Of a stretch of 64,000 bases of DNA, positions 33,447 through 48,747 are shown piece after piece. Source of the DNA: Chloroflexus sp. Y-396-1. Lineage in GTDB: Bacteria; Chloroflexota; Chloroflexia; Chloroflexales; Chloroflexaceae. The notes under the pieces are model-generated. The model saw only the letters and a list, made by a program, of their open reading frames with translations. It was not told where the DNA came from and ran no database searches. A program made the position numbers and the translations under genes. Where the stretch lies: contig NZ_KI911784.1 in assembly GCF_000516515.1 (NCBI RefSeq), positions 682,001 to 746,000 of the forward strand. Reading direction: 5' to 3'. The stretch's first letter is position 1. Each line of letters starts with the position of its first letter.

Positions 33447-33510
33447 AGTAGAGTCACTATTTCTTTTGATAACACCATGCGTCGCATTACATTTATCAAA
33501 GGTTATTGGA

Positions 33511-34131
33511 ATGAACACCGTTGAAGAGAAGATCCGTGCGTTGGCTGTGAAATACCAAAGAGCACTTATCCAGAAGATGGATGCACGTATCGCAGAGATG
33601 AGAAGTGATGACAAATCACACTATTTAAGATACCTGGTTTTGGGAATAACGGATGAAGAAGGCGAACTAATCGACATATATCAAAATAAAGGTCATTTTC
33701 TTTATACTTATGCAGGTGCTCTCCTAGAATAAGCGACATTCCTTTGCTTCAGGGAAAGATACCCTGAGGTGAAACGTATTCAGATAGTGAACACCCTTGG
33801 CAGACGACCACGGCAATTTGAGATAGATTGTGTCATAGGTCAAAATGCAATTGAAATCAAGTGGCGCGATGCAACAACAGATAGAGATCATATCACAAAA
33901 GAGCATACAAGAATACAAGTTATTCGAGGTCACGGCTTCAAACCAATCAGGATCATGTTTTACTACCCTAATCGAAACCAGGCAATAAGAATACAAGAAA
34001 CCATCAAAGCCGTATATCAGGGTGTAGGGGAAGAATACTACACAGGAGATGATGCGTAGGAATACGTAAGATCCCAGACGAGCATTGATCTGAAGAATAT
34101 TCTCCTTCGGATAGCAGAGGAAAACCGATAA
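33511..34131 (+). pseudogene. ApaLI-like type II restriction endonuclease, interrupted by two in-frame stops
   Basis: One continuous frame from ATG 33511 to TAA 34129-34131 (206 codons plus stop) is broken by TAA at 33730-33732 and TAG at 34057-34059. Before the first stop: YLRYLVLGITDEEGELIDIY and NKGHFLYTYAGALLE. After it: ATFLCFRERYPEVKRIQIVN, RRPRQFEIDCVIGQNAIEIK and WRDATTDRDHITKEHTRIQV; after the second, EYVRSQTSIDLKNILLRIAE. The E-I-D ... E-I-K pattern (FEIDCVIGQNAIEIKW) is the likely PD-(D/E)xK active site. The sequence recalls the ApaLI-like endonucleases (recognition GTGCAC), from memory. The stops look like GAA to TAA and TGG to TAG single-base changes; no frameshift is needed. The methyltransferase begins five bases later. 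AT-rich relative to neighbours. Confidence 0.75.
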
Positions 34132-34136
34132 CAGAA

Positions 34137-35136
34137 ATGACAATACTTTGTGGAGATTGTAGAGAAATATTGAAGAAACTGGATGACACAAGCGTCGATC
34201 TTGTGTACATAGATCCGCCCTTTTTTACCCAAAAAACCCCTTCGCTCACTACACAAGATCACACAACAGAATACTCCTTTGAAGATCGTTGGGATTCTCT
34301 TGACGATTACCTCTCTTTTATGAGAGAGGTTCTATGTCAATGCAAGCGTGTGCTAAAAACAACAGGAAGTATCTTTCTTCACTGTGATAAGTCTGCATCA
34401 CATCACCTTCGTATACTACTTGACCAGGTCTTTGGTGCAGAAAACTTCCAGAGTGAAATTATCTGGACGTACCGAAGATGGTCAAGGTGTTCCACTCTCT
34501 GATGTCTGGTATATCCCCTTTTTGAATCCCAAGGCAAAAGAAAGAGTTGGTTATCCTACACAAAAACCAGTTTTGTTATTAGAGCGAATTATCAAAATAG
34601 CGACAGATGCCGGCGATTGCGTACTAGACCCATTTTGTGGTAGTGGAACTACATTAGTTGCGGCAGCATTATCAGGACGTACTTATATTGGAATAGATAT
34701 ATCCAGCGCCGCAGTGAAGTTGTCAGCAGAACGATTGCGGAATCCAATGAAAAGCGAGTCACATCTACTCGCAGTTGGCGAAGAAGGATTTCGAGAAAAA
34801 TCCGATTACGAGCGGAGAATCCTGAAAGCAATAGACGCTATCCCAGTTGAGAGAAACAGTGGAATAGATGGTTTTCTAAGAAGGTTTGTCAACGGACATC
34901 CCGTACCAATACGGATTCAAAAAGAACACGAAGATATTGAAACTGCGAAGCGTAAGTTAATAACGGCCAGTAAATCCAAAAAGTGTTCCATGATGATATT
35001 GATTCGAACAAGGTTAGAAGACAGCTCACAACTTTTTAATTGGACAGATGATAATATATTGGTGATTGACGCCTATGATCTCATTATCAACTCATGGCTT
35101 GAAAAGCAAGAACGCCGGAATAAGCCAGAACAATAG
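34137..35136 (+). pseudogene. DNA methyltransferase of the dead R-M locus, internally deleted
   Basis: The first 121 codons from ATG 34137 give an N4-cytosine/N6-adenine beta-class methyltransferase start: DLVYIDPPFFTQKTP (catalytic DPPF) and IFLHCDKSASHHLRILLDQV, ending EIIWTYRRWS. The rest lies in the +1 frame from about 34480: GVPLSDVWYIPFLNPKAKER, VGYPTQKPVLLLERIIKIAT and the SAM-binding DPFCGSGTTLVAAAL, then a C-terminal extension of about 120 residues to 35136. In the family some 70-110 residues normally separate YRRWS from GVPLSDVW, so a deletion has removed the middle and shifted the frame near 34478. With a dead endonuclease beside it, loss of methylation would no longer be lethal. 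Confidence 0.8.
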
Positions 35137-44408: not shown

Positions 44409-44514
44409 GTGTATGAACGAAGAACTTGCCGAGAATGGTGCAGAAGTGGTACATTATGGTGTACATGTCTGGAGAAAACAGCGTCTCCAAACGAACTTCT
44501 CTGCTTTACGTTAA

Positions 44515-44625
44515 ATAAACGCGGGGCAACTGATCTTGTTCCCGGTAAACCGCCATCCGTACCTGAAAGAATGGTGCTCTGAGGTGGCTTTAGGCAACCT
44601 TCTGGCCGGTGAGATTTTGGGATGA
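44515..44625 (+). pseudogene. C-terminal remnant of an unidentified protein (possibly ATPase-type)
   Basis: Thirty-six codons in one frame, INAGQLILFPVNRHPYLKEW then CSEVALGNLLAGEILG, ending TGA at 44623-44625 in a four-base overlap with an ATG at 44622. The sequence looks like a genuine C-terminus, and such ATGA overlaps mark operons, but the upstream part is absent: an in-frame TAA precedes it. It may belong to an AAA-type ATPase, a guess from feel of the sequence only. Confidence 0.35.
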
Positions 44626-44738
44626 GAAACGGACAGCAGAGAGACCTGGTTGTGCTGGTCGCAGATTTGGATATGGAACACGCTATACGCGGATTGTTAG
44701 CCCAACCCACTCATCGAACATCCAAAGTAATCCAATGA
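44622..44738 (+). pseudogene. N-terminal remnant of an unidentified protein (possibly DUF4276-like)
   Basis: Starting at the ATG overlapping the previous stop: MRNGQQRDLVVLVADLDMEH then AIRGLLAQPTHRTSK, broken off at TGA 44736-44738, only four bases before the EcoRV-like gene. The LVVLVADLDMEHAIRGLL start resembles small nuclease- or TOPRIM-like partners that follow ATPases, for example DUF4276 proteins. The truncation point coincides with the left end of the restriction-modification pair. Confidence 0.35.
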
Positions 44739-44742
44739 AGCA

Positions 44743-45525
44743 ATGGATAAAGAACAGTTTTTGGCCGTCCTGCAAACTGAGGTCGCGACATTCAATTCGG
44801 CAGTCTCTACATCGAACGGCGATTGGATTATTAAGGGATTCATTGACATATATAAAAACATCTACACTATTTCGGTGGATACAAAAGTTATCTCAAAAAT
44901 TATGAAACTTTTGTTGTTTCCCGAACTTGCCCGATTTGCTGAAAAGTACGGCTTGAAAATGATATTATCAGAACAACAGAACTTTTATCCAGACATAAGC
45001 TTTGTTGACGATGAAGATCATCGTTTTGCACTCGACTTGAAGAGTACCTATAGAATTGATAGTGATCGCGTGAATGGTATGACACTTGGTACCTTTACCG
45101 GGTATTTCCGAGAAAGGAACAGTACAAAAAACATCACCTTTCCTTACGGTTCTTACAGTGGCCATTTTGTTCTTGGGGCCATTTATTCAAAGACAGATGG
45201 CTTGATTGACGAACGCAGAAGATATAATTTTGATGAACTTGAACGTATCACATCTGTCATCAGAGACTTTCAGTTTTTCGCTCAGGAGAAGTATCGCATT
45301 GCGTCTGACCGCCCTGGTAGTGGAAACACCAAGAATATTGGCTCAGTTACAGAGATTGATAAACTTATAAGCGGCTCTGGCCCGTTTGCGTCACTAGGGG
45401 AACATGTTTTCGATGATTACTGGATGTATTATTTAACCAAAGATATGGCTAGAGCGGTGGAACTCAAGCGGCCTCCTTACACTAACCTCCGCGGTTATCT
45501 AAAATACAAAGGATTAGCCAAGTGA
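44743..45525 (+). CDS. EcoRV-like type II restriction endonuclease (predicted GATATC)
   Basis: 260 residues, close to EcoRV (245). Alignment by eye to EcoRV, as I remember it, is extensive: YTISVDTKVISKIMKLLLFP, QQNFYPDISFVDDEDHRFAL, DLKSTYR, TLGTFTGYFRERNSTKNITF, and IASDRPGSGNTKNIGS. The catalytic triad Asp84, Asp98, Lys100 (PD...D-x-K) matches EcoRV Asp74, Asp90, Lys92, and GSGNTKNIGS matches the DNA-recognition R-loop GSGNTTNIGS. Blunt cleavage at GATATC is therefore predicted. The gene is AT-rich compared with its neighbours, has a weak ribosome-binding site, and its stop overlaps the methyltransferase start. Confidence 0.9.
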   Translation: MDKEQFLAVLQTEVATFNSAVSTSNGDWIIKGFIDIYKNIYTISVDTKVISKIMKLLLFPELARFAEKYGLKMILSEQQNFYPDISFVDDEDHRFALDLKSTYRIDSDRVNGMTLGTFTGYFRERNSTKNITFPYGSYSGHFVLGAIYSKTDGLIDERRRYNFDELERITSVIRDFQFFAQEKYRIASDRPGSGNTKNIGSVTEIDKLISGSGPFASLGEHVFDDYWMYYLTKDMARAVELKRPPYTNLRGYLKYKGLAK

Positions 45526-46463
45526 TTGTGCAAGGATTGCCACGGGCAACAAAATATGTGATTGTCCCCCCGATAAAATGTCAGGGGATTAAGACTAGGC
45601 TTGTTCAATTTATTTTGAGTAATCTTTCTTGGCATGGAAAAGGCCGATGGATCGAGCCGTTTTTGGGATCAGGTGTAGTTTTGTTTAATGTCCAGCCAGA
45701 ACGTGCTTTAGTAAATGATATTAATCCTCATATCATCAGACTGTACCAGATGATTTACGATGGGAGCTTATCTTCGGAAGAAGTAAGGGCATACCTGACG
45801 GCAGAAGGTAAAAAACTGTTATTAGAGGGCGAGGATTATTATTATCTGGTCAGGGAGCGTTTCAACAAAACTGGCAACCCTTTGGATTTTATTTTTCTCA
45901 ATAGATCATGTTTCAATGGAGTTATGCGCTTTAACAGCAAAGGTGAATTCAATGTCCCATTTTGCCGTAAGTCAGATCGTTTTCGTCAGGCATACGTAAC
46001 CAAGATAGTCAATCAAATTTCCAAAATACAGAAAATCATGCGGGGTAAGGATTGGGAATTCCGCATTGGAGATTGGCGAGAATGTCTCGAGAATGTAACA
46101 GCAGATGATTTTGTTTATCTTGACCCGCCATATATAGGCAGACATACAGATTACTATCAGCAATGGACAGAAAATGATGCGGCAGAATTAGCCAAGATTG
46201 CTCAAAAATTACCTTGTGGTTTTGCATTATCTATGTGGAAAGAAAACAAATATCGCCTGAATGAACATCTTGGTCGTTACTGGGATGGATTGGTGGAACG
46301 AACGTTTACACATTTTTATCACGTAGGCTCAACGGAAAATCTTAGAAACGCAATGGAAGAAGCATTGTTGATAAAACCCGGTTACGAAACACTACCTGTC
46401 GAAACCACAATATCAGCTAAACCAATCCAACTGGTACTTACCTTGCACGAACAGGCAGACTAA
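45522..46463 (+). CDS. D12-class N6-adenine DNA methyltransferase, partner of the EcoRV-like enzyme
   Basis: 313 residues, starting GTG 45522 (overlap with the endonuclease stop) or GTG 45528. Alpha-class Dam/MboIIA-type order: motif X region (PPIKCQGIKTRLVQFIL), SAM-binding motif I WIEPFLGSGVVLFN near residue 46, catalytic motif IV DFVYLDPPYIGRHTDYY near 200. FLNRSCFNGVMRFNSKGEFN is the usual Dam-family target-recognition neighbour. M.EcoRV belongs to the same class and methylates the first A of GATATC. AT-rich, like its partner; no controller gene is visible. Both active-site motifs are intact. Confidence 0.92.
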   Translation: MIVQGLPRATKYVIVPPIKCQGIKTRLVQFILSNLSWHGKGRWIEPFLGSGVVLFNVQPERALVNDINPHIIRLYQMIYDGSLSSEEVRAYLTAEGKKLLLEGEDYYYLVRERFNKTGNPLDFIFLNRSCFNGVMRFNSKGEFNVPFCRKSDRFRQAYVTKIVNQISKIQKIMRGKDWEFRIGDWRECLENVTADDFVYLDPPYIGRHTDYYQQWTENDAAELAKIAQKLPCGFALSMWKENKYRLNEHLGRYWDGLVERTFTHFYHVGSTENLRNAMEEALLIKPGYETLPVETTISAKPIQLVLTLHEQAD

Positions 46464-46569: not shown

Positions 46570-48747
46570 TCACCCCCGCCCAAGCCGCACGCTCAACCCG
46601 GTGTAGCGTCGTTCAACTTCTGTCGTGGCAACCGCTGTCGCAACCGCTCGCCGATCCCCGACAATCACGACTAATTGACGAGCACGGGTGACTGCCGTGT
46701 AGAGCAGATTGCGCTGCAATAATGGCTGATGGGCAAGCAGGAGCGGAATAACCACGACCGGGTATTCGCTTCCTTGACTTTTGTGAACACTGAGCGCATA
46801 CGCAAGGGCGAGGTCATCAAGATCGAGGCCACTGTAGCGTATCGTGCGGCCATCCTCGAAGCGCACGACAACGGTCTGTTCTTCGGCCTTGATCGCAATC
46901 ACTTCACCAACATCGCCATTGTAGACATCACGGTCATAATCGTTGCGTTGCTGGATCACTCGATCACCCACTCGAAAAATGGTCCCGCCGCTGTGATATT
47001 CGGCGACCCCAGGACGAGGCGGATTGAGAGCGGCCTGAAGCGCTGTATTGAGCGCAGCAACCCCGGCCACGCCTTTATGAGTAGGACTGAGAACCTGAAT
47101 ATCACGGCGCGGATCAAAACCAAAGCGACGAGGAATTCGTTCAACTACGAGTTCAACCGTCAGGGCCGCACAACGTTCCGGTGTGTCAGCAGCAAAAAAG
47201 TAGAAGTCGTCATGCGCCCCCCACTCAGGCAAATGACCTTCATTGATCCGGCGGGCATTGGCAGCAATCCCACTACCGGCAGCTTGACGAAAGATTGCGT
47301 CAAGATGCACCTGCGGCACGACGCCACTCTCGATCAGATCGCCAAGAACGCGACCAGGACCGACACTCGGTAATTGATCGGCGTCACCAACGATAACGAG
47401 GTGTGCACCGACAGGCAGCGCTTTCAGAAGCTGATTCGCCAGCACAATATCAAGCATACTCGCTTCATCGGTCACTAACAGATCGCAGTCGAGCGGGTTA
47501 TCGGCGTTGCGCCGGAATTCGCCATCAGGACCGTATTCAAGCAAGCGATGGATTGTGCGTGCTTCGATGCCGGTCGCCTCACTCAACCGCCGCGCTGCCC
47601 GTCCAGTTGGAGCGGCCAGTAGTGGACGATAGCCACGAGCACGCAAGAGCATAACCAGGGCGCGCAAGCTGGTGGTTTTGCCGGTGCCTGGCCCACCGGT
47701 TAGTAGCATGACCGATGTTGTTAGGGCAGTACGCACCGCATTGCGCTGCTGCGCGCTAAGGTTCATGCCGTAACGCCTGGTCAGATGGGCAAAGACGAGT
47801 TCCCAGCGACTGGACGCATAGTGGTCGGCCATGGATGAACGCTGCTGGAGAAGGCGGCGGACTGCATTCGCTACCCCAATTTCGGCGAAGGCGAGTGGCG
47901 GCAAGTAAATCGGGTACTGATCGGGATCAACAGCAGTGACAACCGAATCGCGCCAGAGCTGATTGGTCGCTACCATCTGCGCACCGACATCGGAGACCGC
48001 AGCCTTTGCAACAGAAAGGAGACTGGACGCCCGTTCAATCAGCTTGACCATCGGTAGATAACAGTGACCATCATTCGAGGCCTGACCTAGAGCATACCGC
48101 AAACCAGCAGCAATCCGGCGTGGATCATCGCGGGCAATACCAAGACCAGCCGCAATGGCATCGGCAGTACGAAAACCTACACCGTCCACTTCATCGGCCA
48201 GCCGATACGGTTCCTGTTGCACCACACGCAAGGCATCATCGCCGTAATGCCGGTAGATACGCACAGCAACCCCTGTTGGCAGACCAAGGTCTTGCAGAAG
48301 CAGCATCACATCTTTAATGCGCTGCTGTGCCCGCCAGGCCTCGGCGATCAACGCTGCCTTTTTGCGACCCAGCCCTGGTACCTCGCAGAGTCGCTCAGGT
48401 TCACGATCTAGTACATCGAGTGTATATTTCCCGAACGTTTCGGTAATGCGCTTTGCAGTAGCCGGCCCAACACCTTTGATCAGGCCACTACCCAGATACC
48501 GACGGATACCGTCAATCGTTGCCGGTAGACGGGTTCGATACCGCTGGACGTTAAACTGGCGACCATGGGTCGGATGATCACGCCATTCCCCTTCCAGAAT
48601 AAGTTGCTCACCAAGCCGGACACCGAGCAGATTCCCGACAATCGTCACTGTATGGCGCTTGCCAGTAGGGCGTAGTTGGGCCACAGTGTAGCCATTGGTT
48701 TCGCTCTGGAACGTAATCCGTTCGAGGGTGCCGTCAAGTTCGTGCAT
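46570..48747 (-). CDS. recD2: RecD2-like ATP-dependent DNA helicase
   Basis: 725 residues. N-terminal region with helix-hairpin-helix repeats (IKGVGPATAKRITETFG, LCEVPGLGRKKAALIAEAW, VDGVGFRTADAIAAGLG) and a start typical of RecD2 (DGTLERITFQSETNGYTVAQ). The superfamily 1B helicase core has Walker A LLTGGPGTGKTTSLRALV, Walker B-like DLLVTDEASMLD, VIVGDADQLPSVGPG, and the C-terminal AYALSVHKSQGSEYPVVVIP and LYTAVTRARQLVVIVG motifs. RecD2 is a 5'-3' helicase that acts without RecBC in repair. The length fits. It is convergent with the methyltransferase gene. Confidence 0.93.
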   Translation of the reverse strand: MHELDGTLERITFQSETNGYTVAQLRPTGKRHTVTIVGNLLGVRLGEQLILEGEWRDHPTHGRQFNVQRYRTRLPATIDGIRRYLGSGLIKGVGPATAKRITETFGKYTLDVLDREPERLCEVPGLGRKKAALIAEAWRAQQRIKDVMLLLQDLGLPTGVAVRIYRHYGDDALRVVQQEPYRLADEVDGVGFRTADAIAAGLGIARDDPRRIAAGLRYALGQASNDGHCYLPMVKLIERASSLLSVAKAAVSDVGAQMVATNQLWRDSVVTAVDPDQYPIYLPPLAFAEIGVANAVRRLLQQRSSMADHYASSRWELVFAHLTRRYGMNLSAQQRNAVRTALTTSVMLLTGGPGTGKTTSLRALVMLLRARGYRPLLAAPTGRAARRLSEATGIEARTIHRLLEYGPDGEFRRNADNPLDCDLLVTDEASMLDIVLANQLLKALPVGAHLVIVGDADQLPSVGPGRVLGDLIESGVVPQVHLDAIFRQAAGSGIAANARRINEGHLPEWGAHDDFYFFAADTPERCAALTVELVVERIPRRFGFDPRRDIQVLSPTHKGVAGVAALNTALQAALNPPRPGVAEYHSGGTIFRVGDRVIQQRNDYDRDVYNGDVGEVIAIKAEEQTVVVRFEDGRTIRYSGLDLDDLALAYALSVHKSQGSEYPVVVIPLLLAHQPLLQRNLLYTAVTRARQLVVIVGDRRAVATAVATTEVERRYTGLSVRLGRG

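What the first reader, a model, noticed from the sequence alone, without database searches (positions are those of the whole stretch)
44743..46463. Apparently intact EcoRV-type restriction-modification system in Chloroflexota
The endonuclease preserves Asp84, Asp98, Lys100 and the GSGNT recognition loop of EcoRV; the methyltransferase preserves its motifs. EcoRV homologues are rare outside proteobacteria. It is AT-rich and inserted amid GC-rich genes, indicating transfer, and contrasts with the dead locus 10 kb away.
Basis: partly seen in the sequence, partly recalled or inferred. Interest (0 to 1): 0.7.

Follow-up and report, generated by a model that had tools for sequence, protein, structure and literature searches.

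The report
EcoRV-type operon with altered active-site residue
A photosynthetic Chloroflexus bacterium carries a horizontally acquired, otherwise ordinary relative of the EcoRV DNA-cutting and DNA-protecting gene pair; the cutting enzyme reads as a complete protein but has a lysine where all 112 other relatives examined have an active-site glutamate, so it may already be crippled.

Summary
44743-45525 encodes a full-length EcoRV-family endonuclease (PF09233, E 3e-107; AlphaFold model matches EcoRV crystal structures) and 45522-46463 an overlapping Dam/D12-type adenine methyltransferase (45% identical to M.EcoRV). The operon has 40% G+C in a 54-58% G+C Chloroflexus chromosome, sits at a breakpoint truncating a resident AAA-ATPase/DUF4276-like pair, and its closest relatives are in Anaerolineae and a cyanobacterium: horizontal transfer is well supported.

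Two parts of the interpretation fail. EcoRV homologues are not rare outside Proteobacteria: one scan confirmed at least 553, and 3 of the 80 closest are proteobacterial. 'Apparently intact' is doubtful: the position of EcoRV Glu45, a metal-site side chain, is Lys55 here but Glu in all 112 other homologues covering it. It is the only departure from 47 near-invariant positions; the methyltransferase shows none in 77.

The likeliest state is a working GATATC methyltransferase with an impaired endonuclease, an early step of R-M decay; the homologue in the C. aurantiacus-sized relative has a nonsense codon in its endonuclease and an intact methyltransferase. GATATC is under-represented here (0.27 of expected), but also in a Chloroflexus without the gene. 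An ordinary system with a useful twist.

The parts
44743..45525 (+). EcoRV-family type II restriction endonuclease, 260 aa, complete frame
   Evidence: PF09233 3e-107; EcoRV structures 1.6e-34 by sequence and 9e-21 by fold
44905..44907 (+). Codon AAA, Lys55, at the position of EcoRV Glu45; Glu in all 112 other homologues that cover it
44992..45042 (+). Stretch with the catalytic residues Asp84, Asp98 and Lys100 (EcoRV Asp74, Asp90, Lys92)
45316..45330 (+). GSGNT recognition loop, residues 192-196 (EcoRV 182-186)
45522..46463 (+). Dam/D12-class adenine-N6 methyltransferase, 313 aa, GTG start overlapping the endonuclease stop by 4 bp
   Evidence: TIGR00571 7.8e-55, PF02086 1.2e-42; 45% identical to M.EcoRV; 0 of 77 conserved positions altered
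44448..44622 (+). Decayed C-terminal remnant of an AAA_21 ATPase gene that is whole in G003 (L025:2017-3234), in two frames
   Evidence: tblastn 3e-11; blastn 70.5% over 44493-44692; PF13304 in the G003 gene
44622..44738 (+). First codons of a DUF4276-like gene, cut off just before the R-M operon
   Evidence: 70% over residues 2-28; the only trace of this gene in the genome
43244..44356 (+). Left neighbour: ABC-transporter substrate-binding protein gene conserved in the genus
   Evidence: 77-78% DNA identity in all seven relatives
46570..48747 (-). Right neighbour: RecD2-type helicase gene conserved in the genus
   Evidence: 84-88% protein identity in all seven relatives

Best explanation
This is a horizontally acquired EcoRV-family type II restriction-modification operon (endonuclease first, methyltransferase second, 4-bp overlap, no controller gene). 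The methyltransferase most likely works and methylates an adenine in GATATC. The endonuclease is full-length with the EcoRV fold, the PD-D-x-K catalytic residues and the EcoRV recognition loop, so it should bind GATATC, but a recent Glu-to-Lys change at the EcoRV Glu45 position most likely abolishes or strongly lowers cleavage. The cell would then methylate GATATC without effective restriction: an early, frame-preserving stage of R-M decay, comparable with the nonsense-disrupted homologue in the C. aurantiacus-sized genome. Shown: family, fold, conserved residues, the lysine, the mobile context. Inferred: target sequence, methylation, loss of cleavage.
For: Family and fold. Lys55 against Glu in 87 of 87 plus 25 of 25 further homologues; only departure from 47 near-invariant positions. 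E45 is named with D74 among the anionic side chains that form the EcoRV metal sites (PMC12147125). Methyltransferase unaltered at 77 conserved positions. The G003 homologue has one premature stop in the endonuclease and an intact methyltransferase. Transfer: G+C, breakpoint in resident genes, nearest kin in Anaerolineae and a cyanobacterium.
Against: No activity was measured. The frame is open, all else in the enzyme is conserved and dN/dS is low (0.03-0.12), so the enzyme was under selection until recently. Asp74, Asp90 and Lys92, given as the catalytic residues in the Type II review (PMC4081073), are all kept. No E45 mutant data were found in the library; from memory, E45 substitutions in EcoRV are less severe than those of the D/D/K triad. 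GATATC is avoided in this genome. A sequencing error at the codon cannot be excluded.
Confidence: 0.62

Rival explanations
1. A fully working EcoRV-type R-M system: Lys55 is tolerated or compensated (or is a sequencing error) and the enzyme cuts unmethylated GATATC in incoming DNA.
For: Complete frame, D/D/K and recognition loop invariant, low dN/dS, GATATC 0.27 of expected, rank 8 of 64 palindromes.
Against: Lys55 is unique among 113 homologues and reverses the charge of a metal-site residue (PMC12147125). GATATC avoidance is similar in C. aggregans-sized G005, which has no EcoRV-type gene (0.36), so it is no proof of activity.
Confidence: 0.27
2. The system is a working or decaying R-M operon of EcoRV type but with a target other than GATATC.
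For: Only 32% identity to EcoRV; EcoRV Thr187 is Lys here and in most of this clade; many members of the wider clade use a different D12 methyltransferase.
Against: EcoRV G182, S183, G184, N185, T186, N188 and Q69 are kept across the clade and N70 in all but one; the partner is 45% identical to M.EcoRV; GATATC is avoided more than other palindromes with an ATAT or TATA core in this genome, such as CATATG 0.68, AATATT 0.79, GTATAC 0.86.
Confidence: 0.1

Closest known systems
EcoRV R-M system of E. coli plasmid pLG13 (L003, NC_005019.1)
   Same: PF09233 endonuclease fold, Asp74/Asp90/Lys92 and GSGNT loop; Dam-family methyltransferase (45% identity)
   Different: 32% endonuclease identity; EcoRV has a helix-turn-helix controller gene and a divergent methyltransferase gene, here R and M are co-oriented and overlap without a controller; Glu45 is Lys here
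EcoRV-family R-M operons of Anaerolineae MAGs CFX8 (L038), Nak19 (L039) and DeMMO6_43 (L045)
   Same: 88-93% endonuclease and 83-92% methyltransferase identity, same R>M order
   Different: Glu at the Glu45 position in L038 and L039 (L045 does not cover it)
EcoRV-type locus of G003 (5,258,541-base Chloroflexus genome, C. aurantiacus by length)
   Same: Same order, 77% methyltransferase identity, 72.6% DNA identity over 1.6 kb
   Different: Other chromosomal place; endonuclease has a premature stop at the Q-loop; keeps Glu at position 45
EcoRV-family operons of Rhodothermus marinus pRMAR01 and Antarctobacter heliothermus pSMS3-1
   Same: R>M order, Dam-family methyltransferase, no controller annotated
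   Different: Plasmid-borne; 48-50% endonuclease identity

Membership tests
EcoRV-family type II restriction endonuclease (PF09233) | Sequence match over the whole family profile | tested here: met
   358 bits against a cut-off of 25, profile positions 2-244 of 244
EcoRV-family type II restriction endonuclease (PF09233) | EcoRV fold | tested here: met
   First 39 PDB matches of the model are EcoRV, TM 0.59-0.79 by query length
EcoRV-family type II restriction endonuclease (PF09233) | Catalytic Asp74, Asp90, Lys92 | tested here: met
   Asp84, Asp98, Lys100
EcoRV-family type II restriction endonuclease (PF09233) | Metal-site Glu45, conserved in every other homologue examined | tested here: not met
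   Lys55; Glu in 112 of 112 others. This bears on activity, not on descent
EcoRV-family type II restriction endonuclease (PF09233) | Recognition loop GSGNT and Q-loop QN | tested here: met
   Residues 192-196 and 79-80
EcoRV-family type II restriction endonuclease (PF09233) | Cleavage of GATATC | not testable with these tools
   Needs the purified enzyme
M.EcoRV-like Dam/D12 adenine methyltransferase | D12-class profile with conserved motifs | tested here: met
   PF02086 147 bits, TIGR00571 186 bits; EPFLGSG and DPPY present; 0 of 77 conserved positions altered
M.EcoRV-like Dam/D12 adenine methyltransferase | Methylation of GATATC | not testable with these tools
   Needs a methylome or expression
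Controller-regulated EcoRV system (as on pLG13) | Helix-turn-helix controller gene upstream of R and divergent M | tested here: not met
   R and M co-oriented and overlapping, no such ORF in the operon

The most novel reading that the evidence does not exclude
The Lys55 endonuclease is not simply dead but functionally changed, for example a GATATC-binding, poorly cleaving protein or an enzyme with altered metal use, kept alongside its methyltransferase.
Probability: 0.08. Interest if true: 0.45.

Novelty: new member of a known kind. Interest (0 to 1): 0.33.

Why it matters
It corrects the idea that EcoRV relatives are a proteobacterial speciality: they are spread over many phyla, plasmids and viral contigs, in at least three partner arrangements. 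It also shows why an open frame and the canonical D/D/K residues are not enough to call an R-M system intact. A single missense change at the conserved metal-site glutamate is a natural test of what Glu45 does in EcoRV-type enzymes and of how R-M systems begin to decay, endonuclease first.

Tried and rejected
GATATC avoidance as proof of activity: rejected, because G005 (no EcoRV-type gene) shows similar avoidance (0.36 against 0.27) and whole-genome counts in the genus do not follow gene presence. E45 mutant data: not found in the open library. Transposon or direct-repeat ends around the operon: none convincing. Promoter and terminator scan: no more sites than shuffles give. Long-term pseudogene decay of the endonuclease: rejected, as dN/dS is low and 46 of 47 conserved positions are kept. 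Inheritance of this copy from a common ancestor with G003: not supported (different locus, nearer kin in Anaerolineae).

Full report
WHAT IS THERE. The window lies in a single-contig 4.89-Mb genome at C1:682001-746000; seven other genomes of the same genus are held. One is a single contig of 5,258,541 bases (G003) and another of 4,684,931 (G005), which I recognise from memory as C. aurantiacus J-10-fl and C. aggregans DSM 9485, so the organism is a Chloroflexus species. The two ORFs are at the stated coordinates. The first is a PF09233 (EcoRV) endonuclease at 3e-107. The second is a Dam/D12 adenine methyltransferase whose GTG start overlaps the endonuclease stop by 4 bp. An AlphaFold2 model of the endonuclease (pLDDT 90.5, pTM 0.88) has EcoRV crystal structures as its first 39 PDB matches. 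Asp84, Asp98, Lys100 and GSGNT correspond to EcoRV Asp74, Asp90, Lys92 and residues 182-186 and are invariant in 89 aligned sequences. The methyltransferase departs from none of 77 near-invariant positions.

THE ACTIVE-SITE CHANGE. The EcoRV Glu45 position is Lys55 in the window (codon AAA at 44905-44907). All 87 other aligned homologues with a residue there have Glu. So do 25 further homologues from viral contigs and Chloroflexota genomes, down to about 35% identity. Near-identical copies are among them, so the number of independent lineages is smaller. Close relatives have GAA. No other of 47 positions conserved at 97% or more is altered. The alignment has no gap between the conserved DTK (46-48) and this residue, and residue 55 lies in a well-predicted helix, 47-68. 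A 2025 paper on EcoRV names E45, with D74, among the anionic side chains that form the divalent-metal sites (PMC12147125). The Type II review names D74, D90 and K92 as the catalytic residues (PMC4081073). I infer that a charge reversal here probably abolishes or strongly lowers cleavage. I found no E45 mutant data in the library, and from memory E45 substitutions are less severe than those of D74, D90 or K92, so this stays an inference.

HOW RECENT. Where it can be estimated, dN/dS between the window endonuclease and its nearest relatives is 0.03-0.12 (methyltransferase 0.04-0.08). The endonuclease was therefore under purifying selection until lately and the lysine is probably recent. Other homologues in the same taxonomic family show loss too. 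G003 has one premature stop at the Q-loop (LSE*QNFYPD) with an intact methyltransferase. G008 keeps only a fragment, and G015 is frameshifted on a short contig. Only G007 looks whole. Loss of the endonuclease before the methyltransferase is what established knowledge of R-M systems predicts.

HOW IT GOT THERE. In all eight Chloroflexus genomes the substrate-binding protein gene and recD2 are present; in the three relatives where both lie on one contig they flank an 8-12 kb interval with other genes. In the window the interval is 2.2 kb. Its left part is a decayed end of an AAA_21 ATPase gene and the first codons of a DUF4276-like gene that are whole in G003; then the R-M operon starts. No close copy of the FtsX-type permease that lies here in G003 is left in the genome, and the DUF4276-like gene survives only as this fragment. 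The operon has 40.4% G+C, and homologous operons have 37-42% (one 50%) in surroundings of 47-61%. The nearest endonucleases are from Anaerolineae MAGs (93% over a fragment, 90%, 88%) and a Pseudanabaenaceae cyanobacterium MAG (84%, with stops). The G003 copy is more distant and elsewhere in the chromosome. Horizontal transfer is well supported; its vehicle is unknown.

HOW COMMON. 15 of 400 Chloroflexota genomes have one. Plasmids and viral contigs carry them as well. Of the 80, 33 have the R>M (Dam-like) order of the window. In the other 47 no Dam-like partner was detected; in the ten I inspected a different D12 methyltransferase of about 355 aa (FP[ST]TRYQGSK) lies beside the endonuclease. 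On the tree the two kinds of locus need only two changes. EcoRV itself belongs to a third, distant arrangement with a controller gene.

GENOME AVOIDANCE. In 1.26 Mb of this genome GATATC occurs 84 times against 306 expected from a maximal-order Markov model (0.27, rank 8 of 64 palindromes). The ratio is 0.34 in G003 (dead endonuclease) and 0.36 in G005 (no EcoRV-type gene). Whole-genome counts are 309, 386 and 452. [quoted passage not shown]

VERDICT. The endonuclease is better described as frame-intact with a suspicious active-site substitution than as intact.

Noticed in passing
window 33466-35136: Dead ApaLI-type R-M locus: the endonuclease (PF09499) is split by one TAG and one TAA and the N4/N6 methylase lies in two overlapping frames; G003 has a whole ApaLI-like endonuclease. 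GTGCAC is at 0.67 of expected here, 0.47 in G003 and 0.09 in G005.
   Followed up: partly
L043, L044, L050, L056, L058, L091, L095, L103, L106, L117 (beside the endonuclease): EcoRV-family endonucleases 54-69% identical to the window's are paired with a different D12 methyltransferase (about 355 aa, FP[ST]TRYQGSK) instead of the M.EcoRV-like one: an apparent exchange of the methyltransferase partner within one endonuclease clade.
   Followed up: partly
L043 3127-4002, L050 3142-4002, L117 3145-4041: A second methyltransferase gene directly upstream of the endonuclease, overlapping it, in some loci with the other D12 partner.
   Followed up: no
L002 4896-6774: An EcoRV-type R>M operon on a viral contig, next to genes that look like phage structural genes.
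   Followed up: no
L124-L128: Viral-contig EcoRV relatives with Glu at the catalytic Asp74 position and Arg at the Gln69 position, possibly variant or inactive enzymes.
   Followed up: no
genome samples of G000, G003 and G005 (L142-L241): Very strong avoidance of several palindromes across Chloroflexus (ACGCGT, CGTACG, CAGCTG, GAGCTC, GGGCCC at 0.01-0.12 of expected), suggesting other long-lived R-M systems.
   Followed up: no
L108, residue equal to window Gln79: A Bacteroides MAG copy has a stop at the same Q-loop glutamine codon as the G003 copy.
   Followed up: no
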